Shown here: piece after piece, positions 1,405 through 24,141 of the stretch
Position numbering within the stretch: position 1 is the stretch's first letter
How the letters are laid out: every line of letters starts with the position of its first letter
Virus record (IMG/VR): IMGVR_UViG_3300036715_004475
Coordinates: 1-27,608 of that record
From: a virus
DNA: 27,608 bases
Direction: 5' to 3' (one strand)
Notes under the pieces: generated by a model
What the model was told of the DNA's origin: nothing
The model's input: the letters and a program-made list of their open reading frames with translations, nothing else
The model's database searches: none
Program-made: the position numbers and the translations under genes

Positions 1405-1413
1405 GACAGCACC

Positions 1414-2265: not shown

Positions 2266-2302
2266 GGTTCCCCCCGACAGTGGGAGTGCAGATTAGTTCC
2301 CT

Positions 2303-6010: not shown

Positions 6011-7832
6011 TCAGGAGCGCGCGGTCAAGGTCATTGCGTTCGGAGGGCGGCGTCGCGAGGGCGCGCTGGTACTTCTCCCAGAGCTCGTTGTCCCGCCTCT
6101 CGTCGTCCGTCTGCGTCACGGGCTTCGGCGCCGGCTTGTCGACGCTCACCGGGCCCGTGAGGCGCTGGCCCTTCTCGGCGTCGAGCGCGGCCGCGGCGAC
6201 GGCGGCCGTGTCGAGCGCCTCCGACTGGTACGGCGTGCCCGAGCGCTGCAGCGCGGTGATCTGCGCGGCTTCCCGTTCGTAGAAGGCGAGGAGGTCCGCC
6301 TGCAGATCACCGATGCGCTCCTCACGCTTCGCGACGCGGGTCTCCTCGCGGATGCGCGCGTAGAACTCGTTCTGCCGCGCTTGCCCCACCGCGGCGATCT
6401 GCCGGCGCTCGACGCCCGCGAGGTCCGCGTTGATGGCGATGCACACGAACTCGTTCGGCTTACCGTTCTCATCAACGCGGCCGGGCTTGAGGACGACGAT
6501 GCGACCGAGATCCATCGGGTCGCGCTTGATGACCACGTCCTGCCCTTCGAGCGCGCCCAGCTCGCCGTGGATGAACCACATCCTCTGCAGCGGGATGCCC
6601 TTCTTGAGGACCTTCCGGGTTTCGTTCGGCAGCAGCAGGAGATCGAGCGCGCGCGCCTTGTCCGCCGGCACCTCGAAGCGCGGCCCGGTCCAGGACTGCG
6701 CCTTCTCGAACGGCGTCATCTTCAGCTTGCTGTGGACGGTGCGCTCGTAGACCGTCGTGCACCAGGTGTCGCAGAACTTCTGCAGCTCCTCCGGCGTCCA
6801 CGACAGCTCGATGGTCGCCTTCTTGCTCATCAGCAGTCGCTCGGCGAAGGAGTGGCGCGACTCGATCGCTTTGCGCTCGGCGACGTTGTGGCCGATGAAG
6901 CCCGGCGCGAGCTCCAGCAGGCCGTGAGAGAACGTTCGGAACACGCGCTCGATGTGAGGCTTGTCCTCGCCGTGGAACGGCCGCGCTGTGATGTGGCGGA
7001 TGCCGAGCTCGCGCAGCACGTCGTCGTAGTAGGCGGACACGTAGTCGGAGCCGTTGTCCGTGAGGATCTCTTCGGGCTTGCCCCAGTGCTGCAGGCACCA
7101 GCGCGTGAGCGAGGCGATGTGCGCGGACGCGGAGACGGGCGCCACGTGGATCTTGAAGCGGCGCGACCAGACGTCGAGGCCGCCGACGAGCGAGTAGCGC
7201 TTGCCCTGGAGCATCACGTCGGCGGGCGTCGAGTCCTGCTCCCAGCGCTGGTTGAGCCGCACGATCGATTCGTCGGCGTCACCCATCGCCATCTGGTGGC
7301 GGTTCTTCGCGTCGTCCGGGTTCTTCAGCCGGTCCAGGTAGGACGCGTTCTCCTTCCTCCATGCCGTCGCCCACTTGATGAGCGCGCGCTCGCCGATCTT
7401 TTCGGCGAGGTCGGGCCGCTGGGCGCGCAGCAGCGTGTAGAGCCCGGCGTTGCGGATGTCCGGGTTCCCCTTCTCCGGGTCGAGGACCTGCAGCCACCAC
7501 TTCCTGAGCGACGGCGTCTGGTCACAGACGCCCTTTCCTTTGCGCGTGCCGTAGCCATCGCAGAGCCCGACCAGCCCGCGCGCGTCGTAGCGCTGCTTCC
7601 AGCGGTACAGCGTCGACACCGTGAGGCCGTCGACCTGCCGGCGCAGCTCGGGATCGATGGAGAAGTCGTTGAACGCCTGGACGAACGTCTTCGTCCCCGC
7701 GACGCGGCCCGCGGCGACGTGATTGACCAGGTACGTCTCCCAGAGTTCGAGCACACGCTGCCGCTGCTCGACGCGGAGGCGCTTGTACTCGGGGATCGTG
7801 GAGAGATCCGGCAACGACTGAGGGGCGCTCAT
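5841..7832 (-). CDS. MuA-like DDE transposase
   Basis: The N-terminal part holds a helix-turn-helix (TVSTLYRWKQRYDARGL, about residues 71-87), as in the end-binding domains of Mu-type transposases. The RNase H-like catalytic core has D200 (EQDSTP), D259 (LTDNGSD) and E295 (KPHIERVF), giving DD35E spacing. A Mu-type beta-barrel C-terminal domain follows (VIKRDPMDLGRIVVLKPG), then a charged helical tail. It cuts and joins the phage ends into target DNA for integration and replicative transposition. It starts at ATG 7832, overlapping the Ner-like gene by ATGA. The authentic protein probably ends near residue 606 (about 6011-6015). The remaining codons down to 5841 read Arg/Ala-rich nonsense over the small-terminase gene, so the natural stop codon appears to be missing. 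No MuB ATPase gene follows. Confidence 0.92.
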   Translation of the reverse strand: MSAPQSLPDLSTIPEYKRLRVEQRQRVLELWETYLVNHVAAGRVAGTKTFVQAFNDFSIDPELRRQVDGLTVSTLYRWKQRYDARGLVGLCDGYGTRKGKGVCDQTPSLRKWWLQVLDPEKGNPDIRNAGLYTLLRAQRPDLAEKIGERALIKWATAWRKENASYLDRLKNPDDAKNRHQMAMGDADESIVRLNQRWEQDSTPADVMLQGKRYSLVGGLDVWSRRFKIHVAPVSASAHIASLTRWCLQHWGKPEEILTDNGSDYVSAYYDDVLRELGIRHITARPFHGEDKPHIERVFRTFSHGLLELAPGFIGHNVAERKAIESRHSFAERLLMSKKATIELSWTPEELQKFCDTWCTTVYERTVHSKLKMTPFEKAQSWTGPRFEVPADKARALDLLLLPNETRKVLKKGIPLQRMWFIHGELGALEGQDVVIKRDPMDLGRIVVLKPGRVDENGKPNEFVCIAINADLAGVERRQIAAVGQARQNEFYARIREETRVAKREERIGDLQADLLAFYEREAAQITALQRSGTPYQSEALDTAAVAAAALDAEKGQRLTGPVSVDKPAPKPVTQTDDERRDNELWEKYQRALATPPSERNDLDRALLKRPRRGTQRQARQARPAARDLLVGAQALRQVVPGQDRRHPRDDAGGGRALARVRGR

Positions 7833-8119
7833 GCTCCTCCCTTCGTGGCCTTCTTCTTCTTGGGCTTCTTCTCGTACCGCTCCGGCCAGAGGTCCTTCGG
7901 CTTCATCCCGAGGGCGCGGGCAATGACACGTGCAGCACGCCCGCCCGTGTCCTGCCTCTTGCTCCTTCGCATGGCCTGCGAGAGTGCCGAGTGACTCTTG
8001 AAGCCGTTTGTACGGGCAAGCTTCGAGATGTTCAGGCCCCGACGCGCCAACTCAAATTTAATCCACGCGTTGCGGTGTGCTATGTCGGCCGGCATCTGCG
8101 TGGTCACTACTGTCACCAT
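7829..8119 (-). CDS. Ner/Nlp-family DNA-binding regulator
   Basis: 96 residues. The middle part follows the Mu Ner plan: RNAWIKFELARRGLNISKLARTNGF (first helices and helix-turn-helix), SALSQAM (recognition helix end), then RVIARALGMKPKDLWPERY, the last matching the conserved IWPSRY-type ending of Ner/Nlp proteins. In Mu, Ner represses the early and repressor promoters during lytic growth. Here the gene is first in the leftward operon and divergent from the repressor, the same logic. The tail after WPERY is a Lys-rich extension (KKPKKKK). Start uncertain: ATG 8119 or the internal ATG 8095 (MPADIAHRNAW); neither has a strong ribosome-binding site. Its end overlaps the transposase start by 4 bp. 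Confidence 0.9.
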   Translation of the reverse strand: MVTVVTTQMPADIAHRNAWIKFELARRGLNISKLARTNGFKSHSALSQAMRRSKRQDTGGRAARVIARALGMKPKDLWPERYEKKPKKKKATKGGA

Positions 8120-9024: not shown

Positions 9025-9552
9025 TCACCGGCCGGAATCAGGCGTCCCGTCCAGGCAGGCGCCGTTCTGGCAGATCTGACCCGCGTCACAGTGCCGATCG
9101 CACCGTCCGCAGTTGTCGACCGAGCTCACGTAGTCGACGCAGACATCGTGGCAGGTCGTCTGGTGGTGTGGGCAGTAGCAGTGAGCCCGACTGCACGACG
9201 CGCCTGCTTGGCAGACGCTCCCGCACGCCCCGCAGTTGGCTGCGTCGTTCCAGGTGTCCTCGCAGAAGTCGCCACACGCCATCAAATCCCCCGGCGCGCC
9301 TGGGCAGCCGCCATCGATTACTCGGGTTCCGGCGTCGGGGCAGGCGGGGCAGGCAAACGTCACGGCCGCCCCGCAATTCGTCATTTCCAACGGAGCGCCG
9401 CAAATACCGGCGTCCGCGCAGGCCGCTTCGGCTGAGGCGAAGCAGATACCGGCGTCGGTCCCCGCGTCCTGGGCGTCGAGGGTCGCGGCGCGTGTGGCGC
9501 CGCCGCAGCTCGTCAGGACCAGTGCCAGGCCGAGGAATTCGCGAATTGTCAT
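9025..9552 (-). CDS. Cys-rich secreted lipoprotein, myxobacterial type (prophage cargo)
   Basis: 175 residues. The N-terminus is a lipoprotein signal: MTIREFLGLALVLTSC, lipobox LTSC with Cys16 as the lipidated residue. The rest holds 22 further cysteines, with paired motifs NCGACGSVCQAGASC and NCGRCDRHCDAGQIC each followed by a GxC or HCYC element, like the NCGxCG(x)nC repeats of many myxobacterial surface lipoproteins (Stig1-like). They should form disulfide-bonded small domains outside the cytoplasm. The start at ATG 9552 is supported by GGAGG (complement of 9560-9564). It lies opposite to the flanking genes and has no role in a Mu virion, so it looks like a lysogenic-conversion gene acquired from the host. 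Its ligand is unknown. Confidence 0.85.
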   Translation of the reverse strand: MTIREFLGLALVLTSCGGATRAATLDAQDAGTDAGICFASAEAACADAGICGAPLEMTNCGAAVTFACPACPDAGTRVIDGGCPGAPGDLMACGDFCEDTWNDAANCGACGSVCQAGASCSRAHCYCPHHQTTCHDVCVDYVSSVDNCGRCDRHCDAGQICQNGACLDGTPDSGR

Positions 9553-9723: not shown

Positions 9724-11187
9724 TTGCGCTTCGTGACGACGTCCTCCGCCCAGAAGCAGCCGGCCCGCCGGGTTCTCGAAGCGATTACTTCGCAGCCGTG
9801 GGCTTTGCCCCCGGCGGCGCTCGAAGTGATCCTTTCGATTGCCGCGCGTGAGAACGATCCGGGCGCGTTCGACCAGACGGATGAGAACGGCAACCGGTCG
9901 AAGGCGCCGTTTGAATTGCTGGACGGCGTGGCGGTCATCCCGGTGCGCGGCGCGCTCACCCGGTATGCCTCCATCTTCGACGCCATCTGCGGCGCGGTGT
10001 CGTACGAGGGGCTCCGCTCGAATATCGATGCGGCGCTCTCCGACTCCTCGGTTCGCTCCCTCGTCCTGAAGTTCGACTCCCCGGGCGGCCAGGTCGCCGG
10101 CCTCTTCGAGCTCGGCGACTACCTCCACGGCGCGCGCGGCACGAAGCCCATCGTCGCGTTCGGCGACGGCCTCACCTGCAGCGCGGCGTATCTGCTCGCG
10201 AGCTCCTGCGACGAGATCGTCGGGACGGAGTCGGCGCTCGTCGGGTCCGTGGGCGTCTGCACGACGCTCGTCGACCGCAGCGCGATGGACGCCTCCCTGG
10301 GCATCAAGCGCCGGCAGATTCTCTCGTCAGGCTCGCCGCTCAAGAACCCCGAGGGCGTGAGCCCGGCGGCGGTCGAAGCGGCGCAGCGCATCGTCGACGG
10401 CCTCATGGCGATCTTCGTCGACAAGCTCGCGCGGAACCGCGCGACGACGAAGGCCGACATCCTGGCGAACTACGGGAAGGGCGCGGTCCTGTTGGCCGGC
10501 GCTTCGAGCCAGGCCGAGGGCGACCACTCCGCGCTCGACGCGGGGATGGTCGACCGCATCGCCACGTACGACGAGCTCCTGCACGACCTGCAATCGCAAA
10601 CCTCTCGGCGTGCCCCGCGCGCCGCCCCACCCAGCAATGGAGGAATCCAGATGAAGAACCTCGTCTCCGCCGTCTTTGCCGCACTCGCCCTCAAGCCCGA
10701 CGCCACCGAGGCCGAAGCCGTCGCCGCGTTCCAGGAACGCTTCGCCGCGCGCGCGTCCGCGCCGCCCTCGCTCGACCAGTACGTCCTGCGCGCCGACTAC
10801 GAGAAGACGGTCCAGGCGCTGCGGACCGCCGAGGCCGGGCTCGCGTTCGAGGCCGGTGAGGCCGCGCGCACGCGGGTGAACGCGCTCATCCAGAAGGGCC
10901 ACGACGAGCAGTGCATCACGCCCGCGACGGAACCGATCCACCGCGAGGCGATGGGCACGGAGACGGAGATCGGCGGGCGCAAGGTGTTCCAGGCGAACGC
11001 CGCCGGCATCGCCGCCTTCGAGCGGTTCCTCAAGGTCGCCCCCAAGGTCGCGCCGCCCTCCGGCCTCGGCGACCGCACGCCGCCGGGCACGAAGGGCGCG
11101 ACGCGCGAGCTCGACGCCGACGAGCAGACGATGTGCCGCGTCTTCTTCAACGGCGACGTTGCCGCGTTCCTCGCTGCCAACCCCTAA
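9724..11187 (+). CDS. Prohead protease S49/SppA type fused to scaffold (Mu gpI-like)
   Basis: 487 residues from TTG 9724; GTG 9733 is an equally possible start. The protease domain spans about residues 15-290: SQPWALPPAALEVILSIAARE, then VAVIPVRGALT, KFDSPGGQVAG, the nucleophile region LTCSAAYLLAS (Ser153) and a candidate general-base Lys207 in SSGSPLKN, as in SppA-type Ser/Lys proteases. The C-terminal 178 residues (from Met310) are charged and helical and correspond to the scaffold that is also made separately from an internal start. As in Mu gene I, the enzyme would cleave the scaffold and itself during prohead maturation. It is the first gene of the rightward late operon. Confidence 0.92.
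   Translation: MRFVTTSSAQKQPARRVLEAITSQPWALPPAALEVILSIAARENDPGAFDQTDENGNRSKAPFELLDGVAVIPVRGALTRYASIFDAICGAVSYEGLRSNIDAALSDSSVRSLVLKFDSPGGQVAGLFELGDYLHGARGTKPIVAFGDGLTCSAAYLLASSCDEIVGTESALVGSVGVCTTLVDRSAMDASLGIKRRQILSSGSPLKNPEGVSPAAVEAAQRIVDGLMAIFVDKLARNRATTKADILANYGKGAVLLAGASSQAEGDHSALDAGMVDRIATYDELLHDLQSQTSRRAPRAAPPSNGGIQMKNLVSAVFAALALKPDATEAEAVAAFQERFAARASAPPSLDQYVLRADYEKTVQALRTAEAGLAFEAGEAARTRVNALIQKGHDEQCITPATEPIHREAMGTETEIGGRKVFQANAAGIAAFERFLKVAPKVAPPSGLGDRTPPGTKGATRELDADEQTMCRVFFNGDVAAFLAANP
10651..11187 (+). CDS. Nested capsid scaffold protein (Mu gpZ-like), internal in-frame start
   Basis: 178 residues, same frame and stop as the protease gene. The start is marked by a strong GGAGG (10639-10643) 7 nt before ATG 10651, which is unexpected inside a coding region unless used. 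The sequence starts MKNLVSAVFAALALKPDATE and continues through a coiled-coil-like YEKTVQALRTAEAGLAFEAG section, typical of scaffolds. In Mu, gpZ is made from inside gene I in the same way. It would fill the prohead core and be removed by the protease. Confidence 0.8.
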   Translation: MKNLVSAVFAALALKPDATEAEAVAAFQERFAARASAPPSLDQYVLRADYEKTVQALRTAEAGLAFEAGEAARTRVNALIQKGHDEQCITPATEPIHREAMGTETEIGGRKVFQANAAGIAAFERFLKVAPKVAPPSGLGDRTPPGTKGATRELDADEQTMCRVFFNGDVAAFLAANP

Positions 11188-11243
11188 CCGATCCGCCCAC
11201 CACCAGCCTGAGCGGCCACGGCCGCGATTGAAAGAAGGAAGCG

Positions 11244-12011
11244 ATGTCAGCAGCCACCTCAGACAGGAAGTCCGCCGAGCGCTCAGGACGGGCGTCGGTC
11301 ATGTCCGTTCTCTCCGCCGTCGTCATCTTCGGGCGCACGCTCGTTGGTAAGACGATCGCGGGCCTCGCCCGCCCCGGCGCGAAGAGCATCCCCGGCCTCA
11401 CCATCGTCGGCGTGTCGAGCGAGTACGTCGACAACAGCGCCGGCGCGGATGGAGACAAGACCGTCGCGTTCGAGCGCGGCGTCTACCCGTTCGACAACGG
11501 CGGGGACATCACGGTCGCGCACGTGGGCAAGGCCTGCTACGCGGACGACGACTCCACCGTCTACCTGGACGACCTCGTCGGCGTGCGGCCGTACGTCGGC
11601 CGAATCAAGGACGTCGACAGCAACTACGTCTGGGTGGACGTGGGCGACGGGAAGGCCCCGGTGAAGACGGCACTCGTCGTGAACGTGGCGGACCTCGTCG
11701 CCGCGGACGCGAAGGTCTACCGAGTGATCGCGCCGTGCGCGGGTCTCATCAAGCGCATCCACACGGGGCTGAACGAGCACGCCGTGGCCGGCGCGGACGC
11801 CACCATCACCAGCAAGATCAACGGCGTCGCCGTCACCGGCGGTGTCGTCACCATCGCGCTCGCCGCCAGCGTCATCGGCGACAAGGACGTCGCCACGCCC
11901 ACCGCGGCGAACGTCGTGGCCGAGGGCGATGAGATCTCCCTCACCGTCGGCGGTGGGAACACGAACACGGCAGCCTTCGCCCTCGCGACCATCGAGATCG
12001 AGCCCTTCTAA
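11244..12011 (+). CDS. Head decoration protein, DUF2190-like with extra beta domain
   Basis: 255 residues; AAGGAA just before ATG 11244. Residues about 30-140 match the DUF2190 capsid-cement pattern: GKTIAGLARPGAKSIPGLTIVGVSSEYVDN, VAFERGVYPFDNGG, ITVAHVGKACYADDDSTVYLD, VGRIKDVDSNYVWVDVG. A second domain (about 155-255) starts YRVIAPCAGLIKRIHTGL and is Thr/Ala/Val-rich with alternating strands (ITSKINGVAVTGGVVTIAL), ending TAAFALATIEIEPF. DUF2190 proteins are usually only about 110 residues, so this is a two-domain version. It should bind the outside of the capsid lattice. It lies between scaffold and capsid genes, the place of decoration genes in Mu relatives. Confidence 0.8.
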   Translation: MSAATSDRKSAERSGRASVMSVLSAVVIFGRTLVGKTIAGLARPGAKSIPGLTIVGVSSEYVDNSAGADGDKTVAFERGVYPFDNGGDITVAHVGKACYADDDSTVYLDDLVGVRPYVGRIKDVDSNYVWVDVGDGKAPVKTALVVNVADLVAADAKVYRVIAPCAGLIKRIHTGLNEHAVAGADATITSKINGVAVTGGVVTIALAASVIGDKDVATPTAANVVAEGDEISLTVGGGNTNTAAFALATIEIEPF

Positions 12012-12077
12012 CCGGCTCTTCACGCCCACAACCGAACTGCATTCGCCCCGAGCGGGCGCCACACGAGGAGGATTGAA

Positions 12078-12983
12078 ATGCTCGCAAATAAAAGGAACGT
12101 GGACGGCATCTTCAACGGCTGGAAGAAGGACTTCGCGGAGACGTCGCTCTTTTACGCGAGCTCCGACTACGCCAAGGTCTGCACGATCATCAAGTCGGAG
12201 ACGGAGACCGAGAACTACCCGCGCTTCGACGACGTGCCGGACATGCGCGAGTGGCTCGGCGACCGCGTCGTGAACGACCTCAGCGTCAGCAACTACTCGC
12301 TGCGCAACAAGGACTACGAGCTGACGTACGCCCTGAAGCGGACCCAGGTGGAGGACAACACCTGGGCGAGCCAGGGAATCCACGTGAAGCAGGCGGCCTA
12401 CGTCTCGGCGACGAAGCCGGACCGCCTCGTGTTCGGCGAGCTCCTCCCGAACGGCTTCGACCCCGTGAAGGGGAAGTGCTCGGACGGCAAGGCGTTCTTC
12501 GCGGCGAATCACCAGGTGGGCAACGGCACGAAGTCGAACGTGCTGACCGGCTCGGGCCCGACGCTCGTGAACCCCTGGTTCATCGTCGACGGCCGCATGC
12601 CGCTGAAGTCCTTCATCTTCCAGGACCGCAAGCAGCCCGAGTTCGTGGTGATGGACAAGATCGACGACGAGGCGGTGTTCACCCAGGGCAAGATCCGCTG
12701 GGGCGTCGACTCGCGCTGGGCCGCCGGTTACGGCCTCTGGCAGACCATCGTGGGCAGCACGAAGAAGTTCTCCGCGGACTCGCTCGAGGAAGCGCTGGGG
12801 CTCATCGCCGGTCAGACGAACGACAAGGGCGTGAACCTCGGCCTCATGGGCACGATGGTCATCTTCGGCCAGTCGAACCGCGCGGACATTCTCGACGTCA
12901 TCGGCATCGACCGCATCGCGGGCGGCATGGGCAACAAGAACTACAAGGCGCTCGAACTGCTCCGCACGTCCTGGCTGAAGTAG
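12078..12983 (+). CDS. Major capsid protein (Mu gpT-like)
   Basis: 301 residues; Mu gpT is 305. Recognised from the N-terminus MLANKRNVDGIFNGWKKDF (in gpT, a helix starting at a phage-type IFxGFxxxF), the strand-rich core YPRFDDVPDMREWLGDRVVNDLSVSNYSLRNKDYELT, the glycine loop LVFGELLPNGFDPVKGKCSDGKAFFAANHQVG, and the C-terminal WAAGYGLWQTIVGS. It forms the HK97-fold icosahedral shell. GAGGAGG (12065-12071) 6 nt before the ATG is the strongest ribosome-binding site in the window, as expected for the most abundant virion protein. A tRNA-like gene starts 8 bp after its stop codon. Confidence 0.95.
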   Translation: MLANKRNVDGIFNGWKKDFAETSLFYASSDYAKVCTIIKSETETENYPRFDDVPDMREWLGDRVVNDLSVSNYSLRNKDYELTYALKRTQVEDNTWASQGIHVKQAAYVSATKPDRLVFGELLPNGFDPVKGKCSDGKAFFAANHQVGNGTKSNVLTGSGPTLVNPWFIVDGRMPLKSFIFQDRKQPEFVVMDKIDDEAVFTQGKIRWGVDSRWAAGYGLWQTIVGSTKKFSADSLEEALGLIAGQTNDKGVNLGLMGTMVIFGQSNRADILDVIGIDRIAGGMGNKNYKALELLRTSWLK

Positions 12984-12990
12984 CGCTCGC

Positions 12991-13066
12991 CGCGGGGTGG
13001 AGGAGCGGCTGACCTCGCCGGGGCCCCATGACCCCGGAGGCGCTGGTTCGAGTCCAGCCTCCGCAA
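12991..13066 (+). tRNA. Initiator-like tRNA (CAT in an 8-nt anticodon loop)
   Basis: A full cloverleaf can be drawn. Acceptor 12991-12997 (CGCGGGG) pairs with 13059-13065 (CTCCGCA) except C1xA72. D stem GAGG/CCTC (13000-13003, 13013-13016) with a 9-nt loop containing GG. Anticodon stem CGGGG/CCCCG (13019-13023, 13032-13036). T arm GCTGG-TTCGAGT-CCAGC (13042-13058). A73 at 13066 is followed by CCT, not CCA. Three hallmarks of bacterial initiator tRNA are present: the C1xA72 mismatch, A11:U24 in the D stem, and consecutive G:C pairs in the anticodon stem. The oddities are the anticodon loop CCCCATGA, which has 8 nt with C before CAT instead of U33, and one extra base after the D stem. It lies between the capsid and gp36-like genes. 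The antisense strand reads LDSNQRL, a known false-ORF signature of tRNA genes. Confidence 0.75.
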
Positions 13067-13110
13067 CCTCTGCAGGTGTGACCGGGCCGCCACGCCCACC
13101 ACCTGCTCCC

Positions 13111-13128
13111 TTTCGCAAACCATCGGGC
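13111..13128 (-). repeat. Repeat copy 4, between tRNA and head-tail genes
   Basis: TTTCGCAAACCATCGGGC on the plus strand, identical over 18 bp to copy 2 at 501-518 near the left end. It lies in the non-coding gap after the tRNA and partly overlaps the first arm of the GC hairpin at 13125. Its presence 13 kb inside the phage suggests a binding site shared with the ends (inference). Confidence 0.65.
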
Positions 13129-13157
13129 CGGCCCGTGGCGGGGCCGGCCCCCCTTTC
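13125..13157 (+). terminator. GC-rich hairpin with short T run after the tRNA
   Basis: GGGCCGGCCC at 13125-13134 and again at 13141-13150 form a perfect 10-bp stem with a 6-nt loop, followed by CCCTTTCC. It would stop or slow transcription after the capsid gene and tRNA, reducing expression of the low-copy genes downstream. Each arm is itself palindromic, so alternative small foldings exist. Confidence 0.55.
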
Positions 13158-13187
13158 CGCTCCTGACCGAGCGCACGGAGACCGACG

Positions 13188-13631
13188 ATGCAGACGCTCC
13201 TCACCATCACGACCTTCCGCGAGCGCCTCGGGGAAGAGAACTACATCCTCGTCGCGGATCCGCGGCGCACCGGCACCGTCGACGAGACGAAGGTGCAGCG
13301 GGCCATCGACGACGCGACTTCGTACGTCTGGGGCAAGGTCCAGGCGGGCCAGCACAAGCTTCCGCGCAACGTCGTGCCGGACGTGCTCGTCGGCCTCGCC
13401 TTCGACCTCGCCGTCTACAAGGTGTGCCGCTTCACCGGCGCCGGCATGACCGACGACATCCGCGAGGGCTACAAGGCCGCGCGCCAGGACTGCGCCGATC
13501 TCGCGTCCCGCGAGCTGATGCTCGGCGAGGAGCTCACGGCCGAGCAGCCCAGCGCGGGCGACGCGCCGATCTTCGTGGCCACCGGCGGCCCGCGTCAGTT
13601 CGAGCGGAGCAAGACGGGGGGCGCTCTGTGA
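13188..13631 (+). CDS. Head-tail joining protein DUF1320 (Mu gp36-like)
   Basis: 147 residues, the family's usual size. The N-terminus has the DUF1320 pattern: a short region with ITTFRERLGEENYILVADPR, then DETKVQRAIDDATSYVWGKVQAG (first adaptor helix), HKLPRNVVPDVLVGLAFDLAVYKVCRF (second helix), and DIREGYKAARQDCADLASREL. A proline-rich, charged tail follows. Members act as neck adaptors joining the portal to the tail. GGAG at 13177-13180 precedes the ATG. Its stop overlaps the next start (GTGA). Confidence 0.9.
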   Translation: MQTLLTITTFRERLGEENYILVADPRRTGTVDETKVQRAIDDATSYVWGKVQAGQHKLPRNVVPDVLVGLAFDLAVYKVCRFTGAGMTDDIREGYKAARQDCADLASRELMLGEELTAEQPSAGDAPIFVATGGPRQFERSKTGGAL

Positions 13632-14062
13632 TCTCACTCGATGTCCAGGGCTTCGAAGCCGTCGAACGTCTCCTGCGGCCCTTCGCGGCGCGCGAGCTCG
13701 ACGACGCGCTCCGCCACCTGGAGCCGCTGCTCGTCGCGCAGACGCGTCGCCGGCTGCAGGACACGAAGACGGCGCCGGACGGCACGCCCTGGGCGCCGTG
13801 GGCCCCGAGCACGGCGCGACGCGCGCTCCCAGGACAAAGCCTGCTGGAGCGCACGGGCCAGCTGCGCGACCAGCTCGAAGTGCAGGAGGACAGCCAGGCC
13901 GTCGAGATCGGCAGCGACCTCGTCCGCGCCGCGGTGCTCTCCGAAGGCCGTCCGTCGGTAGGCATGCCGGCGCGGCCGCTGCTCGGCCTGAGCCCGCGCG
14001 ACGAGGAAGAGATCGTCGACGCCATCGACACCTGGCTCGCGCGGCGACTGGAGGGGCGATGA
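13628..14062 (+). CDS. Virion morphogenesis / tail completion protein (Mu gpG-like, phage_tail_S)
   Basis: 144 residues from GTG 13628, a start fixed by its 4-bp overlap with the previous stop codon. Family pattern: ALRHLEPLLVAQTRRRLQDTKTAPDGTPWAPW (the conserved F/W region after a DGxxW-type turn), LLERTGQLRDQL, and the closing ARPLLGLSPRDEEEIVDAIDTWL, which matches the FLGLS..d..eI ending of phage_tail_S proteins. Such proteins cap the tail or fit heads to tails. Translation is coupled to both neighbours. Confidence 0.88.
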   Translation: MISLDVQGFEAVERLLRPFAARELDDALRHLEPLLVAQTRRRLQDTKTAPDGTPWAPWAPSTARRALPGQSLLERTGQLRDQLEVQEDSQAVEIGSDLVRAAVLSEGRPSVGMPARPLLGLSPRDEEEIVDAIDTWLARRLEGR

Positions 14063-14658
14063 GCGACAACGTCCCCAGCTCTCTCGCGCAGCTCCTCGAC
14101 CTCATCGTCGCGCGCATGGCCGAGAAGCTCGGCAACGCCGTGCGAGTGGAACCGCACGACGGCCGCTTCGACGCCGAGGAGATTCGACGCTGCGCGGCGT
14201 TCGCGCCCGCGGTGTTCGTGTCGTGCCTGGGCACCGTGCCCGAGCAGAACCCGCGCGTGGGCAAGAACCTCAACCCGCGCGTCCAGTGGGGCGCCTGGAT
14301 TCTCACGAAGGACCAGGCCATCCCCGCGCAGATCGGCCGGATGAAGGTCGCGCTCAACCTCGGCGAGGTGCTCATGCGGCTCGTCGCGGTGGAGACGTGG
14401 GACGCCTGGAACACCAGCGCGGCGATGAACCTCTCGCTCGCGAACCTCTACAACGGCAAGAAGACGGACGCCGCGGGCGTGGCGCTGTGGGTCCTCTCCT
14501 GGGACCAGCGCGTCGAGCTCAACCTGTCGACGCCCATCGACCAGCTCGACGCGTTCACGCAACTCGACTCGACGATCGTCGCCACGACCCCTTCCACCAC
14601 TCCCACCGCCGAACGACAGGTCCTCGCTGAGGACCTGATCGCACTGGAGCAAGAATGA
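14059..14658 (+). CDS. Tail terminator-like protein DUF1834 (Mu gp37-like)
   Basis: 199 residues from ATG 14059, overlapping the previous stop by 4 bp (ATGA) with GAGGGG upstream. Position between the gpG-like and gp38-like genes and the beta-rich sequence (AFAPAVFVSCLGTVPEQN, VQWGAWILTKDQAIPAQI, GVALWVLSWDQRVELNL) fit the DUF1834/gp37 family, which is thought to end the tail tube at the neck. It is acidic at the C-terminus (VLAEDLIALEQE). Identification rests on synteny and general pattern more than on a sharp motif. Confidence 0.8.
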   Translation: MSDNVPSSLAQLLDLIVARMAEKLGNAVRVEPHDGRFDAEEIRRCAAFAPAVFVSCLGTVPEQNPRVGKNLNPRVQWGAWILTKDQAIPAQIGRMKVALNLGEVLMRLVAVETWDAWNTSAAMNLSLANLYNGKKTDAAGVALWVLSWDQRVELNLSTPIDQLDAFTQLDSTIVATTPSTTPTAERQVLAEDLIALEQE

Positions 14659-14882
14659 GCGAGCGCCTCTTCGTCAAACCCGCGCGGCCCGGCCTCGTGG
14701 TCCGCGACCCCGTCACACTCAAGCCGCTCGCCGAGAAGGGCGAGAGCAAGCCCCGCGACAACTACTGGCGCCGTCGCCTGAAGGCGAACGACGTCGTCGA
14801 GTGTCCCCCGCCGGCCGAGCCGTCCGAGGCCGCGGCGGTCGTCCCCCCTGCCATCCCTGCTGACCCCGAGGCCCACGAATGA
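14655..14882 (+). CDS. DUF2635 small protein (Mu gp38-like)
   Basis: 75 residues. The first 50 give the DUF2635 signature: LFVKPARPGLVVRDPVTLKPLAEKG followed by DNYWRRRLKANDVVE (conserved YW-RRL-GDV). The Pro/Ala-rich tail of about 25 residues is disordered. It lies in the constant place just before the sheath gene, with overlapping start (ATGA, 14655-14658) and stop. Its role in Mu tails is not established. Confidence 0.9.
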   Translation: MSERLFVKPARPGLVVRDPVTLKPLAEKGESKPRDNYWRRRLKANDVVECPPPAEPSEAAAVVPPAIPADPEAHE

Positions 14883-16345
14883 TCGCCTTCACGCTCCTCG
14901 ACAACGACTCACTCATCCCTGGCACGCGCGTGGAGAACGACAGCACGCGTGCGTCGCGTGGGCTGCCCGGCATCCGCGGCCGCATCCTCGTCATCGGCCA
15001 GCAGCTCTCCACCGGGACGGCGCCGCTGCTGACGCCGAAGCGCGTGCAGAACGCGAAGCAGGCGGTCCAGTTCTACGGGCCGGGCTCCATGCTCGCGAAC
15101 GAGCTCGCCGCGCTCATCCAGGCGAACCCGCGCGTGGAGGTGTGGGCCATCGGCCTGGATGACCCCACCGGCTCGAAGGCCGTGGGCAACTTCGCGTTCG
15201 CCGGCACCGCGACGGCGGACGGAATCGCGCGCCTCTACATCGGCGGCGTGCGCGTGAACGTGCCTGTCGCGAAGGGCGACACGGCGGCGGTCGTCGCGGC
15301 GGCGGCCGTCGCGGCCATCAACGCCCTCACGACGTTGCCGGTGACGGCCGCGCAGGGCTCCACCGGTCACACGGGCGAGGCCATCCCGACGTGCAAGTGG
15401 AAGGGCACGACGGGCAACCTCATCGACCTGCGCACGAACTACTACGACGGCGAATCGCTCCCCGCCGGCATCACCTGCACCGTCACCGCGATGGCGACCG
15501 GCACCGGCTCTCCCGCGCTGTCGGACGCGCTCGCGGTGGTGACGAACACGCAGTACACGAGCTACGTCTCGCCCTTCTCCGACTCCACGAACTTCACCGC
15601 GCTCGACACGGAGCTCGAACGGCGATTCGGCCCCGAGGTCCAGATGGAGGGCGTCGGCTACGTGGGCGTCTCGGGGAGCTCGTCGACCATCGCCACGTTC
15701 GGCGCGGGGAAGAACTCGAAGCAGATCGTCGCGCTGGGCACCGGGCTGTCGCCCACCGCGCCCTGGGAGGCGGCCGCCATCCTGGCCGCGACGTCCGAGC
15801 TGGAGGCGAGCCCGGCGCGGCCGCGCACGACGCTCAAGCTGCAGGGGATGCTCCCTCCGGCCGACGTCGACCGCTTCGACAAGACGGAGCGCAACCTCCT
15901 GCTCGTCGACGGCGTCAGCACGTACACGGTGAACGACGACGGCTCCTGCCGCATCGAGCGGCTCGTCACCACGTACAAGACGAACGACGCGAACCTGCCG
16001 GACACGTCGTATCAGGCGCTCACCATGCTCCTCGTGCTCTCGGCGATGCGCGTGTCCGTGCGGACGCGGTTCGGCCTGAAGTATCCGCGCTGCATCCTCG
16101 CGGACGACGACGCGGAGGTCGACGCCGGCATCCCGGTGATGAAGCCGAAGATCGCACGTGCGGAGCTCACCAGCCTCTTCGAGGAGTGGATGGGCGCGGG
16201 CTGGTCCGAGAACAAGGCGCAGTTCGAGCGAGACCTCCTGGTCGAGCGCAGCGAGAGCAACCGCAACCGGCTGCAGGCGCTCATCGCGCCCGAAAAGGTC
16301 GGCGAGTTCCTCCAGATGGACGTCCTCAACCAGTTCGGCACGTAA
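14879..16345 (+). CDS. Contractile tail sheath protein (Mu gpL-like)
   Basis: 488 residues against 495 for Mu gpL. Family features: the N-terminal strand region LLDNDSLIPGTRVENDSTRA, GRILVIGQQLSTGTAPLLTPKRVQNAKQAVQFYGPGSMLA, NPRVEVWAIGLDD, the middle protruding domain (about 100-250), and the C-terminal core SCRIERLVTTYKTN, RVSVRTRFGLKYPRC and LAPEKVGEFLQMDVLNQFGT-type ending. It polymerises around the tube and contracts at infection. The start overlaps the gp38-like stop by 4 bp. Confidence 0.94.
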   Translation: MIAFTLLDNDSLIPGTRVENDSTRASRGLPGIRGRILVIGQQLSTGTAPLLTPKRVQNAKQAVQFYGPGSMLANELAALIQANPRVEVWAIGLDDPTGSKAVGNFAFAGTATADGIARLYIGGVRVNVPVAKGDTAAVVAAAAVAAINALTTLPVTAAQGSTGHTGEAIPTCKWKGTTGNLIDLRTNYYDGESLPAGITCTVTAMATGTGSPALSDALAVVTNTQYTSYVSPFSDSTNFTALDTELERRFGPEVQMEGVGYVGVSGSSSTIATFGAGKNSKQIVALGTGLSPTAPWEAAAILAATSELEASPARPRTTLKLQGMLPPADVDRFDKTERNLLLVDGVSTYTVNDDGSCRIERLVTTYKTNDANLPDTSYQALTMLLVLSAMRVSVRTRFGLKYPRCILADDDAEVDAGIPVMKPKIARAELTSLFEEWMGAGWSENKAQFERDLLVERSESNRNRLQALIAPEKVGEFLQMDVLNQFGT

Positions 16346-16372
16346 GGCTTTCTCTCTCGAAGGGATTCGATA

Positions 16373-16732
16373 ATGGCCCAGTACACAGGCATCGTGACCA
16401 TCACCATCGACGGCGTGAAGTACTCCTCCATGTCGGGCGCGAAGCTCGAAATGGGTGGGTTCAAGCGCAAGTCGATCATCGCGAACGGCAGAGTCAAAGG
16501 CTTCTCCAAGACGGGCGTGGAGTCGCGCGTCACCTTCACGATGCCGCACGGCCGCGGCGACGACGCGACGATCTTCGACGACATGGAGGACGTCACGCTG
16601 CTCTTCGAGTGCGACAGCGACCAGATCTACAAAATCAACGGAGCCTTCTCCGAGGAGCCCGGCACCCTGAACGAGGAAGAGGGGAAGCTCGACCTCAAGT
16701 TCGCCGGCCCGAAGGCACAGCTCCAGAAGTAA
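16373..16732 (+). CDS. Tail tube protein (Mu gpM-like)
   Basis: 119 residues against 118 for Mu gpM. Beta-rich with the usual tube plan: TGIVTITIDGVKYSSMSGAKLEMGGFKRKSI, VKGFSKTGVESRVTFTMPHGRG, DVTLLFECDSDQIYKINGAFSEEPGTLNEEEGKLDLKFAGPKA. It stacks as hexamer rings inside the sheath. GAAGGGA upstream of ATG 16373. A strong hairpin follows at 16771. Confidence 0.93.
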   Translation: MAQYTGIVTITIDGVKYSSMSGAKLEMGGFKRKSIIANGRVKGFSKTGVESRVTFTMPHGRGDDATIFDDMEDVTLLFECDSDQIYKINGAFSEEPGTLNEEEGKLDLKFAGPKAQLQK

Positions 16733-16770
16733 CCACCGAGATCAACCCAACCCACCGAGAGCAAGTGCGT

Positions 16771-16800
16771 CGAGAGGGGCCGGGGCCCCGGCCCCTCTCG
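16771..16800 (+). terminator. Perfect 30-nt palindrome after the tube gene
   Basis: CGAGAGGGGCCGG at 16771-16783 pairs fully with CCGGCCCCTCTCG at 16788-16800: a 13-bp stem with a 4-nt loop. There is no T run, so it is not a classical intrinsic terminator. It may stabilise the upstream sheath/tube mRNA end or attenuate transcription into the tail-chaperone and tape-measure genes. Confidence 0.5.
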
Positions 16801-16864
16801 CGGCGGGCGAGGACCATTCACCCACGCGTCCACGGACGCCCATTCAAAGGAAGGCAGGCACCCC

Positions 16865-17221
16865 ATGGCTCCCCCGAAAGGTTTCATCGAAGAGCACGAC
16901 GACGGGTCGATCACGGTCACGCTGGAGTTTCCCGTCGAGATTCGTACGAAGGCGAAGGGCGACGACGAGGACGCGAAGCCCGTGACGTCGAAGGTCATCG
17001 AGAAGATCACCTTCAAGCCGGCGATCGCGGCGCACCTCATGGCCATCGACGAGGTGAAGGGCCCGGTCTCCCGTGACATCGCGCTGATGGAGCAGCTCAG
17101 CGACTACACGCAGAAGGAGCTCCGCCGCATCCGTTGGACCGACCACCAGCGGTGCGTCCTGGCCGTGCAGCAGCTCCTGGGAAAATCCCAACCGACTGGC
17201 GAGGAATCCTCCGAACCCTGA
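16865..17221 (+). CDS. Tail assembly chaperone, zero-frame product (Mu gp41-like)
   Basis: 118 residues. MAPPKGFIEEHDDGSITVTLEFPVEI with an acidic beta-rich N-terminal half, then KITFKPAIAAHLMAIDEVKG and DIALMEQLSDYTQKELRRIRWTDHQRCVLAVQQLLGK: this is the gp41-type pattern in which the last part names a helix with LS.Lt...l..l. Such chaperones coat the tape measure while the tube assembles. Near its end it carries a slippery site giving a longer product. AAGGAAGG lies about 11 nt before ATG 16865. Confidence 0.88.
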   Translation: MAPPKGFIEEHDDGSITVTLEFPVEIRTKAKGDDEDAKPVTSKVIEKITFKPAIAAHLMAIDEVKGPVSRDIALMEQLSDYTQKELRRIRWTDHQRCVLAVQQLLGKSQPTGEESSEP

Positions 17222-17310
17222 TTGCCCACTTCGGCGGGCTTCCGGTTCCACTCGACCAGTTGGATGGCAAGGCCTTGAGGTTCTGGCTTTCGCAGGTGCC
17301 CCGTGAGTAG
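16865..17310 (+). CDS. Tail assembly chaperone, -1 frameshift product (Mu gp41-42-like)
   Basis: The zero frame is read to codon 107 (AAA, 17183-17185); a -1 slip then continues at ATC 17185-17187 to TAG 17308-17310, for about 148 residues. The added 41 residues, starting IPTDWRGILRTLIAHFGGLP and ending FWLSQVPRE, read like protein, with conserved-looking PLDQLDGKALRFWL, and not like a chance frame. Established knowledge: almost all long-tailed phages, Mu included, make two chaperone forms by a frameshift just upstream of the tape measure gene. The extended form ends 8 bases into the tape measure gene. Confidence 0.85.
17179..17185 (+). other. Programmed -1 ribosomal frameshift site G GGA AAA
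   Basis: Heptamer GGGAAAA in register with the zero frame (CTG GGA AAA), a canonical X XXY YYZ slippery site that allows both P- and A-site tRNAs to re-pair after slipping back. It lies 12 codons before the zero-frame stop. I did not identify the downstream stimulating structure. Confidence 0.85.
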
Positions 17311-19162
17311 CAAGCTCACCACATCGCTGCTGCTGCGCTTCATCGACGCAGCGTCGGGCCCGATGGGCACGACGCTGCGCACGGCGGCGAACGGGTTCGC
17401 GACGCTGAAGACGGCGGCCGCCGCAGCGGACAAGCACTTCGACACGGCGTCCCACCTGAAGCACGCCGCGGACGGCGCCGCACAGTTCGCGCAGGGGGCG
17501 GCCACGTTCGTGGAGCGACCCATCAAGACGGCGGCCGACTTCGAACACGCCATGAATCGCGTGGGCACGAAGCTGGAGGCGAGCGCCGCCGACGTCGCGA
17601 CCCTCACGACCGCGGCGAAGGAGATGGGCTCCACGACGCGCTACAGCTCGGGCGAGGCCGCGACGGGCATGGAGATGCTGGCGCAGGCCGGCTACAGCAC
17701 GACGCAGATCCTCTCGGCGCTCCCCGCGGTGTTGGACCTCGCGGCGAACGACGACATGCAGCTGGGCCCGGCGGCGCTCATCGCCTCCACGTCGCTGCAC
17801 TCCTTCGGGATGGAAGCGAAGGAGATGACGCGCCTGGTGGACGTCCTGGCGAAGACGTCGACGGCCACCGACACGACCGTCACGGACCTGGGCGAGAGCC
17901 TGAAGTACGCGGCGCCGTCGGCGCACCTGCTCGGCCTCAACGTCGAGCGCACGAGCGCGATGCTCGGCGTGCTGGCGAACAACGGCCTGCGCGGGACGGT
18001 CGCCGGTACAGCGCTCAAGGATGTGTTCTCCAGGCTCGCGGCGCCGAAGTCGATCGGCCGGCAGCTGCTCGATCACTACGGAATCAAGCCGGAGGACGCG
18101 AAGCACAACCTGCGTCCGGTGGAGACGGTGCTCGCGGAGCTCGACGCGAAGATGGCCAAGCTGGGCACTGCGCGGCGCTCGCTCGTACTGGACCGCGTGT
18201 TCGGTCAGGAGGGCGCGGGGGCGGCCGCCATCCTCATGCACTCGGCGGCGTCGGGGGAGCTCGCGTCGTCGAACGCCGACCTGATGAACGCCCAGGGCTA
18301 CGCGGCGTCGCAGGCCGCGCGAATGATGAACGACACGGAAGGGGCGACGAAGCGGCTCACAAGCGCAACGGAGCGGTTGAACATCAGCGTGGGAGACTCG
18401 CTCCTTCCTCAGACGAAGGAACTCGAAGAGCGGGTCGCGAAGTACATCAACACGGCGACCGGATGGATTGAGAAACACCAGGGCGTGGCGCAGGGCTCTC
18501 TTGTCCTGGTGGGCGGCCTCGGCCTCCTCGCCGCGGGCGCCGCCGGCACCGCGCTCGCGCTCTCCACGCTGAGCACGTCGCTCGGCGTCCTCGCGGTCGC
18601 GGTGGGCAGCAAGTCGACGGGCGTGCAGATCCTCGGGGCCGGCCTCCGGTGGTTGGGCGCGACGGCGCTCAGCGTCGTGCCGGGGCTCGGCGCGGCGACC
18701 GAGGCCGTCTGGGCGTTCGGCGCGTCGATGCTGGCTTCACCGCTGGCGCCGTTCGTCATCGGCGCGGCCGCGCTCGGCGGCGCCGCCTATCTCATCTGGC
18801 GGAACTGGGACGGGCTCAGCGCGTTCTTCCACGACTGGTGGCAGGGCTTCGAGCAGGACTGGAACACGGGCGTCTCCGGCTTCGTCGATTCGTGGCTCGA
18901 AGGCTTCAAGCAGATCCGGGCGGGCGCGGAGTCGCTCTGGCACGGGACCGGCCCGGCCGCCGGCACGGGCAGCGGTGCGGAGGCGAGTGGACCGCCTGCG
19001 CTCGGGCCGAACTCGTCGAGCAGCTCCTCGTCACAGTCTCAGATGTCCGGCGAGCTCCACGTGAAGATCGACAGCGAAGGGCGCCCGCGCGTCGTGACGA
19101 TGCGCAGCGGCAAGAAGCTGCGGCTCTCGACGGACACCTCGTTCTCGCTGGCGGGGTCGTAG
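17303..19162 (+). CDS. Tail tape measure protein
   Basis: 619 residues from GTG 17303, overlapping the end of the frameshifted chaperone. The N-terminal half has the phage-minor-tail pattern: FERPIKTAADFEHAMNRVGTKLEASAADVATLT, MGSTTRYSSGEAATGMEMLAQAGYST, ALPAVLDLAANDDMQLGPAALI, LGVLANNGLRGTVAGTALKD. The middle has helix/coil with two hydrophobic stretches (about residues 393-425 and 450-498), ending in PFVIGAAALGGAAYLIW, which may enter the host membrane during DNA delivery. A Ser run (SSSSSSSQSQ) and a short C-terminal beta segment close it. It fixes tail length and lies where expected, after the chaperone gene. Confidence 0.93.
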   Translation: MSSKLTTSLLLRFIDAASGPMGTTLRTAANGFATLKTAAAAADKHFDTASHLKHAADGAAQFAQGAATFVERPIKTAADFEHAMNRVGTKLEASAADVATLTTAAKEMGSTTRYSSGEAATGMEMLAQAGYSTTQILSALPAVLDLAANDDMQLGPAALIASTSLHSFGMEAKEMTRLVDVLAKTSTATDTTVTDLGESLKYAAPSAHLLGLNVERTSAMLGVLANNGLRGTVAGTALKDVFSRLAAPKSIGRQLLDHYGIKPEDAKHNLRPVETVLAELDAKMAKLGTARRSLVLDRVFGQEGAGAAAILMHSAASGELASSNADLMNAQGYAASQAARMMNDTEGATKRLTSATERLNISVGDSLLPQTKELEERVAKYINTATGWIEKHQGVAQGSLVLVGGLGLLAAGAAGTALALSTLSTSLGVLAVAVGSKSTGVQILGAGLRWLGATALSVVPGLGAATEAVWAFGASMLASPLAPFVIGAAALGGAAYLIWRNWDGLSAFFHDWWQGFEQDWNTGVSGFVDSWLEGFKQIRAGAESLWHGTGPAAGTGSGAEASGPPALGPNSSSSSSSQSQMSGELHVKIDSEGRPRVVTMRSGKKLRLSTDTSFSLAGS

Positions 19163-19164
19163 CC

Positions 19165-20538
19165 ATGGCCGTCTCGTTCGTCGACCAGTTCGACCAGGAC
19201 ACGCTCACGCAGCCGGCGGTCGATCTGCCGGCGCCGACGCGCGGCTGGCAGGACACAATCGACGGGCGGCCCGCCTCCTTCCGTGGCGTCCCCTTCACGG
19301 CGGGCGACCTCGACACGACCGTGGGCCGTCGCACCGTCGTGAAGTCGATGCCCGGCCAGGACAAGCCGTTCGTCCCCGACCAGGGGCGACGCACGCGGCG
19401 GTTCCGGGTGCGCGGCGTGGTGTTCGGCCGCGACTACATGACCCAGCGGGACTTCCTGCTGGCCGCGTTCGAGCAGGAGGGCTCGGGCACGCTGGTGCAT
19501 CCGACGCTCGGCACCTTCGAGTGCAAGGTGGAGGGCGACGTCCGGCTGCACGAGTCGGTGGAGCGCGACCAGGGCCGCGCCGACTTCGAAGCGGTGTTCG
19601 TGCAGGTGACGGACACGCTGCTGGAGGTGTCACCCGACACGACGGGCGACGTGGTGCGGGCGGCCGCGGTCGCGCGGGCGACGCTGGCGCCGGACTTCGA
19701 GGCTCACTTCACCATCGGCGGCATGGCGGCCGCCTTCTCGCGCTCGGCGGTGGAGGCGATGACCGCGGCCTCGCGGGCGTTCTACTCCGTGCAGGCGAAG
19801 CTCAACGTCGGCCTCGGCGCCATCGACCAGGCGGAGTCGCAGGTCCTCGATCTCAGTCAGGGCATCGACCACATCGCGCGCACGCCCAGCACGTATGCGG
19901 AGGAGGTCATCGGCGCGTACGGCATCCTGGGCGGCGTCATCAGCAAGCTGCAGGAGGACTATCGGGAGTCGGCGGCGAAGGCGACCGAGGTCGCGCGGTT
20001 CGCGAGCGTGACGCGGCCGGTGGAGACGCGGAAGTTCGCGAGCGCGACGCAGACGCTCGTCGTGGACAGCTGCGACTTCGCCGCGGCCCCGCTCCCCTCC
20101 GCGGTGACGGCGCTGCTGCAGGAGACGCCCACGCGCGTGCAGCAGCGGGCGAACGTGGCCGCCATCGAGGCGCTCACCCACCGCGCGGCGCTCGTCGCCG
20201 GCTGCCAGGCGGCCGCCCTCGTCGACTATCCCTCCTCGGCCGACGCGCTCGGCCTGCTGACCATCCTGGTCGACCGCTTCGCGGTGGAGGAGAACACGGC
20301 CTCCACGGACGTCTACGCCGCGCTGGTCGACCTCCGCCGCGCCATCGTGCGGCACCTGTCCACGGTGGCCGACGAGCTCCCGGGTGCGGTGACGTACACG
20401 CCGGCGCGGACGATGCCGGCGCTCGTCGTGGCCCACCAGATGACCGGCGACGCCTCGACCGAGGCCGAGCTCATCGACGCGAACAACATCCGCCATCCGC
20501 TCTTCGTGCCCGGCGGGCAAGTGCTGAGGGGCGCATGA
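19165..20538 (+). CDS. Mu gpN-like DNA circularization / tail-tip protein
   Basis: 457 residues, ATG 19165, 2 bp after the tape measure stop. The N-terminal domain (about 25-165) shows the gpN pattern: RGWQDTIDGRPASFRGVPFTAGDLDTTVGRRTVVKSMPGQDKPFVPDQGRRTRRFRVRGVVFG, GTLVHPTLGTFECKVEGD and RADFEAVFVQ, a strand-rich baseplate fold. Long helices follow (VQAKLNVGLGAIDQAESQVLDLSQ). In Mu, gpN sits at the tail tip with gpP; the older name DNA circularisation protein persists in databases. The stop overlaps the next ATG by 3 bp. Confidence 0.9.
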   Translation: MAVSFVDQFDQDTLTQPAVDLPAPTRGWQDTIDGRPASFRGVPFTAGDLDTTVGRRTVVKSMPGQDKPFVPDQGRRTRRFRVRGVVFGRDYMTQRDFLLAAFEQEGSGTLVHPTLGTFECKVEGDVRLHESVERDQGRADFEAVFVQVTDTLLEVSPDTTGDVVRAAAVARATLAPDFEAHFTIGGMAAAFSRSAVEAMTAASRAFYSVQAKLNVGLGAIDQAESQVLDLSQGIDHIARTPSTYAEEVIGAYGILGGVISKLQEDYRESAAKATEVARFASVTRPVETRKFASATQTLVVDSCDFAAAPLPSAVTALLQETPTRVQQRANVAAIEALTHRAALVAGCQAAALVDYPSSADALGLLTILVDRFAVEENTASTDVYAALVDLRRAIVRHLSTVADELPGAVTYTPARTMPALVVAHQMTGDASTEAELIDANNIRHPLFVPGGQVLRGA

Positions 20539-22183: not shown

Positions 22184-22617
22184 TGCTGCTCCTCCGATGG
22201 CTCAACGAGAAGCAGCGCGCCGACCTCATCCGCGACGAGGACGGCGAGTTCACGGTCGATCCGGGGCTGGAGTCGGCGCTGGTGATCTCGCTCTTCACGG
22301 ACCTGGCGGCGCCGCCGGAGCTCGCGGAGCCGGGCGCGATGCGCGCGGGCTGGTGGGCGGACGCGTACCAGGACGACCGTCCGGGCTCGCTCATCTGGAC
22401 GCTCCGCCGTCGCACGCTCACGGACGTGTCGCTGCAGCTGCTGGAGACCTACGCGAAGGACGCGACGGTGTGGCTGGTCGACGACGGCGTGGCGAAGAGC
22501 ATCACGGCGACGGCGCGGCGCAAGTCGCGCACGGCCGCGCTGCTGACCCTCGTCATCACGCCGCCGGACGGGACTCGATTCTCGCGCACCTGGGAGGTGC
22601 CCTTTGGCGTTCAATAG
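22183..22617 (+). CDS. Baseplate protein gp46-like (Mu gp46, GP46 family)
   Basis: 144 residues, one-base overlap with the spike gene. Recognised from FTVDPGLESALVISLFTD, then WWADAYQDDRPGSLIWTLRRRTLTDVSLQLLETYAKDA and LVIT-type end strands, which match the GP46 family (pattern LetavviaLfTDrra....RGWWgD..........lGSrLWll.R). It links the hub and the wedge of the baseplate. Its 3' end overlaps the gp47-like gene by 14 bp. Confidence 0.92.
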   Translation: MLLLRWLNEKQRADLIRDEDGEFTVDPGLESALVISLFTDLAAPPELAEPGAMRAGWWADAYQDDRPGSLIWTLRRRTLTDVSLQLLETYAKDATVWLVDDGVAKSITATARRKSRTAALLTLVITPPDGTRFSRTWEVPFGVQ

Positions 22618-24138: not shown

Positions 24139-24141
24139 GCC

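What the first reader, a model, noticed from the sequence alone, without database searches (positions are those of the whole stretch)
12991..13066. Phage-borne initiator-like tRNA with an 8-nt anticodon loop
Between capsid and head-tail genes is a cloverleaf with all three features that bacteria use to mark tRNA-fMet: C1xA72 mismatch, A11:U24, and a run of G:C pairs closing the anticodon stem. CAT is in the loop. But the loop has 8 nt (CCCCATGA), U33 is replaced by C, and CCA is not encoded (A73-CCT). Known: +1 frameshift suppressor tRNAs have 8-nt loops, and phage tRNAs in Mu-like elements are rare. Inference: it may act in initiation on phage messages, act as a decoy for initiation factors or formyltransferase, or be a decayed copy of the host gene.
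Basis: partly seen in the sequence, partly recalled or inferred. Interest (0 to 1): 0.75.

Follow-up and report, generated by a model that had tools for sequence, protein, structure and literature searches.

The report
Odd initiator tRNA in phage capsid operon
A virus of bacteria related to phage Mu carries, right after its capsid gene, its own altered copy of the tRNA that starts protein synthesis; at least ten other Mu-like phages carry such a tRNA at or beside the same place, which suggests they gain something from controlling translation start late in infection.

Summary
At 12991-13066 (+) there is a tRNA gene (Rfam tRNA 40.2 bits, ARAGORN) with initiator marks (C1xA72, A73, A11:U24, G:C-rich anticodon stem, CAU). 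Its anticodon arm has 6 bp and an 8-nt loop, with C33, G37, a 4-nt variable loop and no encoded CCA. Without the anticodon arm it is still nearest to Met initiators. All 20 canonical stem pairs stay paired, through compensatory changes, so it is not an old relic. It starts 7 nt after the stop codon of the gpT major capsid gene, so it is presumably co-transcribed with it. Beyond the finding: among 211 distinct gpT+gp36 loci, 7 of 7 genuine tRNAs are Met and all lie between gpT and gp36. A tRNA-first scan added four more Mu-like phages (three in the slot, one just before gpT). On a gpT tree the 11 carriers are 11 separate tips, so the association recurs. Bacterial initiators have an invariant loop (54/54 CTCATAA); phage ones vary (14/79 altered). 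Best reading: a phage initiator tRNA made from the late capsid transcript to keep initiation going, its altered loop possibly escaping host anticodon nucleases. Whether the 8-nt-loop form still initiates is unproven; recent decay or an RNA-processing role are live rivals. New variant of a known kind.

The parts
12991..13066 (+). initiator-type tRNA-Met gene (bases 1-73; CCA not encoded, CCT follows at 13067-13069)
   Evidence: ARAGORN; Rfam RF00005 40.2 bits; initiator model R1 57.5 bits
12991..12997 (+). acceptor stem 5' strand CGCGGGG; C1 faces A72 (mismatch)
   Evidence: sequence; model alignment
13000..13016 (+). D arm GAGG-AGCGGCTGA-CCTC with A11:U24 and a compensated G13:C22
   Evidence: sequence
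13018..13037 (+). anticodon arm: 6-bp stem CCGGGG/CCCCGG with 8-nt loop CCCCATGA (13024-13031)
   Evidence: sequence; fold; ARAGORN four-base anticodon
13042..13058 (+). T arm GCTGG-TTCGAGT-CCAGC, canonical
12078..12983 (+). major capsid protein gpT; its stop codon lies 7 nt before the tRNA
   Evidence: Pfam PF10124 7.9e-70; PHROG 371; spacing
13125..13150 (+). 10-bp G+C-rich hairpin between the tRNA and gp36; possible transcript end or processing stop (not scored as a terminator)
   Evidence: fold (z -2.5 for 13067-13187); terminator scan negative
13188..13631 (+). gp36-like head-tail adaptor, downstream border of the slot
   Evidence: Pfam PF07030 2.5e-14; PHROG 195

Best explanation
This is a phage-owned initiator-type tRNA-Met. 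It is transcribed as part of the late capsid message, cut out by the host's RNase P and 3' tRNA-processing enzymes, and given CCA by the host's CCA-adding enzyme. It is charged with methionine and formylated, and so adds initiator tRNA while capsid proteins are made. Its altered anticodon loop, like those of other phage initiators, would make it a poor substrate for host anticodon nucleases such as VapC, which cut tRNA-fMet between A38 and C39. Shown here: the tRNA fold match, the initiator marks, the position 7 nt after the capsid stop codon, maintenance of the stems, recurrence at one slot in Mu-like phages, and loop diversity in phage but not bacterial initiators. Inferred: transcription, processing, charging, formylation, and nuclease escape.
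For: Rfam and ARAGORN matches. With the anticodon arm masked, the 30 nearest tRNAs are all Met; the next isotype scores 20 against 36. C1xA72, A73 and A11:U24 are read directly. Against six relatives all stem pairs compared (15-20) stay canonical despite 4-11 changed stem nucleotides; P of this under random change is 0.004 or less. Among 211 distinct gpT+gp36 loci the 7 genuine tRNAs are all Met and all in the gpT-gp36 interval, 7.5% of the bases, p about 1e-8. Three more Mu-like phages with an in-slot copy (L290, L305, L358) and one just before gpT (L384) came from a tRNA-first scan. All 11 keep CAT and A72. In 9 of 11 the tRNA starts 3-11 nt after a stop codon. Carriers are 11 separate tips on the gpT tree. 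Bacterial initiators 54/54 CTCATAA; phage ones 65/79 (Fisher p 8e-4). VapC cleavage site: PMC4105405; the phage-tRNA evasion hypothesis: PMC10264068.
Against: An 8-nt loop without U33 is not expected to read AUG well. CCA is not encoded, whereas nine of the other ten Mu-like copies encode it. The A-C step that VapC cuts is still present. The cloverleaf is not the lowest-energy fold. The initiator model scores the window (57.5 bits) below ordinary elongator tRNAs (66-80 bits), because of the anticodon insert. Some sister copies are damaged: L358 has an insert of about 30-40 nt near the T arm, L165 has C55 and a stem mismatch. No close relative of this phage was found (best gpT identity 39%), so conservation of the 8-nt loop could not be tested. 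The host is unknown, so no host tRNA or nuclease could be compared.
Confidence: 0.45

Rival explanations
1. Recently disabled copy: an initiator tRNA that was useful to the phage lineage but has lately lost CCA and gained indels in its anticodon arm, and now does nothing.
For: 8-nt loop, C33, no CCA, cloverleaf not the lowest-energy fold. Other Mu-like copies show damage (L358 insert, L165 C55 and stem mismatch, L305 2:71 mismatch). Runs of G and C are easy targets for slippage.
Against: Every stem is intact, with double compensatory changes. The inserted G and C pair with each other. The T arm and tertiary positions are canonical. CCA is not needed in the gene if the host adds it.
Confidence: 0.27
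2. RNA punctuation: the tRNA shape is used as an RNase P / tRNase cutting signal that separates capsid message from the less abundant head-tail message; decoding does not matter.
For: Start 3-11 nt after a stop codon in 9 of 11 carriers. RNase P does not need the anticodon arm, which fits an arm free to change. In L207 a second head-operon gap holds tandem tRNA-like units without an anticodon arm (L207:1509-1639).
Against: All 11 carriers keep the CAT anticodon and A72, which RNase P does not need. Most Mu-like phages do without any tRNA there.
Confidence: 0.15
3. Decoy: the RNA binds formyltransferase, MetRS, IF2 or an anticodon nuclease and titrates it instead of being translated with.
For: Acceptor-end marks read by formyltransferase are intact while the loop read by the ribosome is not.
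Against: MetRS reads the CAU loop; a single operon copy is a weak titrant; most sister copies have normal loops.
Confidence: 0.07
4. Frameshifting initiator or suppressor: the 8-nt loop exposes CCAU and reads AUGG as a four-base codon.
For: ARAGORN reads a four-base anticodon. 8-nt loops are the hallmark of +1 suppressor tRNAs (established knowledge; PMC9094753 and PMC3617221 listed).
Against: No phage gene is known here that needs such a shift; several window genes start with ATGG. The extra base is 5' of CAT, and C33 replaces the U-turn base.
Confidence: 0.05

Closest known systems
Bacterial initiator tRNA-fMet
   Same: C1xA72, A73, A11:U24, G:C run at the anticodon stem, CAU, canonical T arm and core
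   Different: 6-bp stem with 8-nt loop, C33 and G37 (bacterial loops 54/54 CTCATAA), 4-nt variable loop, CCA not encoded
Phage-encoded tRNA-Met of Donnerlittchen, D3 and Haboob
   Same: nearest sequences (0.79-0.80 identity); same C33 and GCTGG T stem
   Different: 7-nt loop CCCATAA, 5-bp stem, CCA encoded, not Mu-like
Met tRNAs in the gpT-gp36 gap of other Mu-like phages (L063, L066, L154, L165, L202, L207, L290, L305, L358; L384 lies just before gpT)
   Same: same slot, strand, isotype, A72, and short distance after a stop codon
   Different: 7-nt loops; nine of the ten encode CCA; six of the ten have elongator-type Y11:R24
+1 frameshift suppressor tRNAs (laboratory mutants such as sufB2)
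   Same: 8-nt anticodon loop
   Different: not an initiator; the laboratory mutants typically carry the extra base 3' of the anticodon (own knowledge)
Anticodon-nuclease-resistant phage tRNAs (van den Berg et al. 2023, PMC10264068)
   Same: altered loops in phage but not host tRNAs
   Different: that study reports that phages generally avoid tRNA-fMet where VapC-LT2 targets it; here many phages carry it

Membership tests
bacterial initiator tRNA-fMet | no Watson-Crick pair 1:72 | tested here: met
   C1xA72
bacterial initiator tRNA-fMet | A11:U24 (purine-pyrimidine) | tested here: met
   GAGG/CCTC
bacterial initiator tRNA-fMet | three G:C pairs closing the anticodon stem | tested here: met
   CCGGGG/CCCCGG
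bacterial initiator tRNA-fMet | body closest to Met initiators | tested here: met
   top 30 all Met
bacterial initiator tRNA-fMet | 7-nt anticodon loop CTCATAA with U33 | tested here: not met
   8-nt CCCCATGA; hosts 54/54 CTCATAA
bacterial initiator tRNA-fMet | formylated and used in initiation | not testable with these tools
   needs biochemistry
tRNA (Rfam RF00005) | covariance score over the gathering cut-off | tested here: met
   40.2 against 29 bits
Mu-like phage gpT-gp36 tRNA-Met slot | Met tRNA on the same strand between gpT and gp36 | tested here: met
nuclease-evading phage tRNA | loop differs from host at the nuclease site | tested here: inconclusive
   loop differs, but the A38-C39 step remains; no host known
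+1 frameshift suppressor tRNA | 8-nt loop | tested here: met
+1 frameshift suppressor tRNA | reads a four-base codon | not testable with these tools
   needs a reporter assay

The most novel reading that the evidence does not exclude
Mu-like phages have repeatedly and independently placed an initiator-type tRNA into their capsid operon, so that initiation capacity rises with capsid synthesis and resists host nucleases that cut tRNA-fMet; this phage uses a working natural initiator with an 8-nt anticodon loop.
Probability: 0.15. Interest if true: 0.8.

Novelty: new variant of a known kind. Interest (0 to 1): 0.5.

Why it matters
Why phages carry tRNAs is an old open question. A single tRNA, always the initiator kind, at or beside one slot in unrelated Mu-like phages is a cleaner case than large tRNA arrays, because codon compensation can hardly explain one Met tRNA. 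Together with the loop diversity of phage initiators against the invariant bacterial loop, it gives a direct test of whether phages defend translation initiation. A natural initiator with an 8-nt loop would also test how much the P site tolerates.

Tried and rejected
Direct relatives by capsid protein alone: none in viral or genome contigs; the terminase found one distant relative without a tRNA. Exact scans of viral contigs for the 6-bp/8-nt arm: none. A looser scan gave one other probable 8-nt-loop phage Met tRNA (L410, not near gpT). Integration site (attP) remnant: many viral contigs do carry only the 3' half of tRNA-fMet, starting at the anticodon loop, but the window has the whole tRNA in the middle of a transposase phage, so this is rejected. 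Host contamination: rejected, since capsid and adaptor genes flank it. Assembly indel error in the G/C runs: cannot be excluded without reads, but the flanking genes are full length without frameshifts. Bit score of model R1 as a proof of initiator identity: rejected, since elongator tRNAs score higher. Host search by gpT in 353 further genomes: best 39% identity, no tRNAs in the fetched loci. Literature: no report of this slot found, but most subscription journals are not held.

Full report
What is there. The window is a 27,608-base virus record of a Mu-like phage: transposase, terminase and Portal_Mu on the minus strand, then head protease, gpT capsid, gp36 adaptor and tail sheath on the plus strand. 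Between gpT (stop codon ends at 12983) and gp36 (start 13188) lies the reported cloverleaf. ARAGORN calls it, with a four-base anticodon; Rfam tRNA scores 40.2 bits against a cut-off of 29. The stems read C1xA72 plus six pairs, 4, 6 and 5; the loop is CCCCATGA; A73 is followed by CCT.

Is it an initiator, and is it maintained? With the anticodon arm masked, the 30 nearest among the tRNAs of all fetched loci are Met; the nearest whole sequences are phage Met tRNAs of Donnerlittchen and Haboob/D3, which also have C33. Compared with six relatives, the window keeps all pairs canonical despite 4-11 changed stem nucleotides, 1-5 of the pairs changed on both sides; random change would do so with probability 0.004 or less. 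This argues for selection over most of its history. It does not exclude very recent damage to the anticodon arm. A limit: the cloverleaf is not the lowest-energy fold (-33.7 against -38.5), and the initiator model R1 scores it below elongator tRNAs because of the insert.

Recurrence. Protein-guided searches gave 211 distinct loci with gpT and gp36. Seven genuine tRNAs were found in their 1.94 Mb, all Met, all on the same strand and all in the gpT-gp36 interval, which makes up 7.5% of the bases. Two further ARAGORN calls without a clear isotype (L064, L097) and one in L207 lie outside it. A scan for the initiator-type 3' end, blind to context, found three more phages with a copy in the slot (L290, L305, and L358, whose copy carries an insert) and one with the tRNA just before gpT (L384). 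In 9 of 11 the tRNA starts 3-11 nt after a stop codon, leaving little room for a promoter, so it must come from the capsid transcript (inference). All 11 keep CAT and A72; ten have no 1:72 pair and one has U1-A72. Six of the eleven have an elongator-type Y11:R24, so the A72 is kept in otherwise mixed sequences. On a gpT tree (FastTree) the 11 carriers need 11 changes: either repeated gains or many losses. Pair counts on an alignment of 15 phage and host copies support the fold (94% of cells paired, 15 of 21 pairs with compensatory change).

Loop diversity. Bacterial initiators from two phylum samples plus seven earlier loci have one loop, CTCATAA, in 54 of 54; phage contigs chosen by the 3' end alone show 65 of 79, Fisher p 8e-4. 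Some of the 79 may be host copies at prophage ends, which would make the difference larger, not smaller. The 6-bp/8-nt arm itself was found in no other viral contig; one other probable 8-nt loop is L410.

How it works. VapC toxins cut tRNA-fMet between A38 and C39 (PMC4105405), and phage tRNAs have been proposed to evade such nucleases through loop changes (PMC10264068). An initiator made late from the capsid message would restore initiation when the host's is cut or limiting. I give this 0.45 as a whole. The nuclease step is weaker than the rest, since the A-C step is still present in the window's loop and no host or nuclease is known. Rivals are recent decay (0.27), RNA punctuation (0.15), decoy (0.07) and four-base reading (0.05). 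Punctuation gains from L207, where another head-operon gap holds tandem tRNA-like units lacking the anticodon arm, and loses because CAT and A72 are kept in all 11.

Known or new. Phage-borne tRNA-Met of initiator type is common: 388 phage records match one of them. The recurrent Mu-like slot and the 8-nt loop were not found described in the held literature. It fails one defining feature of tRNA-fMet, the 7-nt loop with U33, so it should be called an initiator-derived variant, not a proven tRNA-fMet.

Noticed in passing
L207:1509-1639: Tandem tRNA-like units with D and T arms but no anticodon arm, between the head protease and the next virion gene of a Mu-like phage that also has an intact Met tRNA in the gpT-gp36 slot.
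   Followed up: partly
L358:3609-3718: Met tRNA in the gpT-gp36 slot with an insert of about 30-40 nt (with a small hairpin) in the variable/T arm region.
   Followed up: partly
L410:1962-2038: Phage Met tRNA with a probable 8-nt loop TTTCATAA and no encoded CCA, in a locus where no gpT was found.
   Followed up: partly
L064:2591-2670: tRNA-like gene with a four-base anticodon gctg (8-nt loop) and encoded CCA, upstream of the head genes of another Mu-like prophage.
   Followed up: no
L289, L292, L293, L303 and about 30 others: Viral contigs carrying only the 3' half of tRNA-fMet from the anticodon loop on: probable attP blocks of integrases that use tRNA-fMet as attachment site.
   Followed up: partly
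window 9025-9552 (-): Cysteine-rich lipoprotein-like protein with NCGACGxxC repeats, reminiscent of Myxococcota proteins; a cargo gene and a clue to the host (not tested).
   Followed up: no
window 24600-26381 and 26391-27608 (+): Two tail-end proteins with similar N-terminal regions (RIDT..T...DLFGP) in tandem.
   Followed up: no
window 1-8119 (-) against 9724-27608 (+): Portal, terminase and transposase lie on the opposite strand to protease, capsid and tail genes, unlike phage Mu.
   Followed up: no
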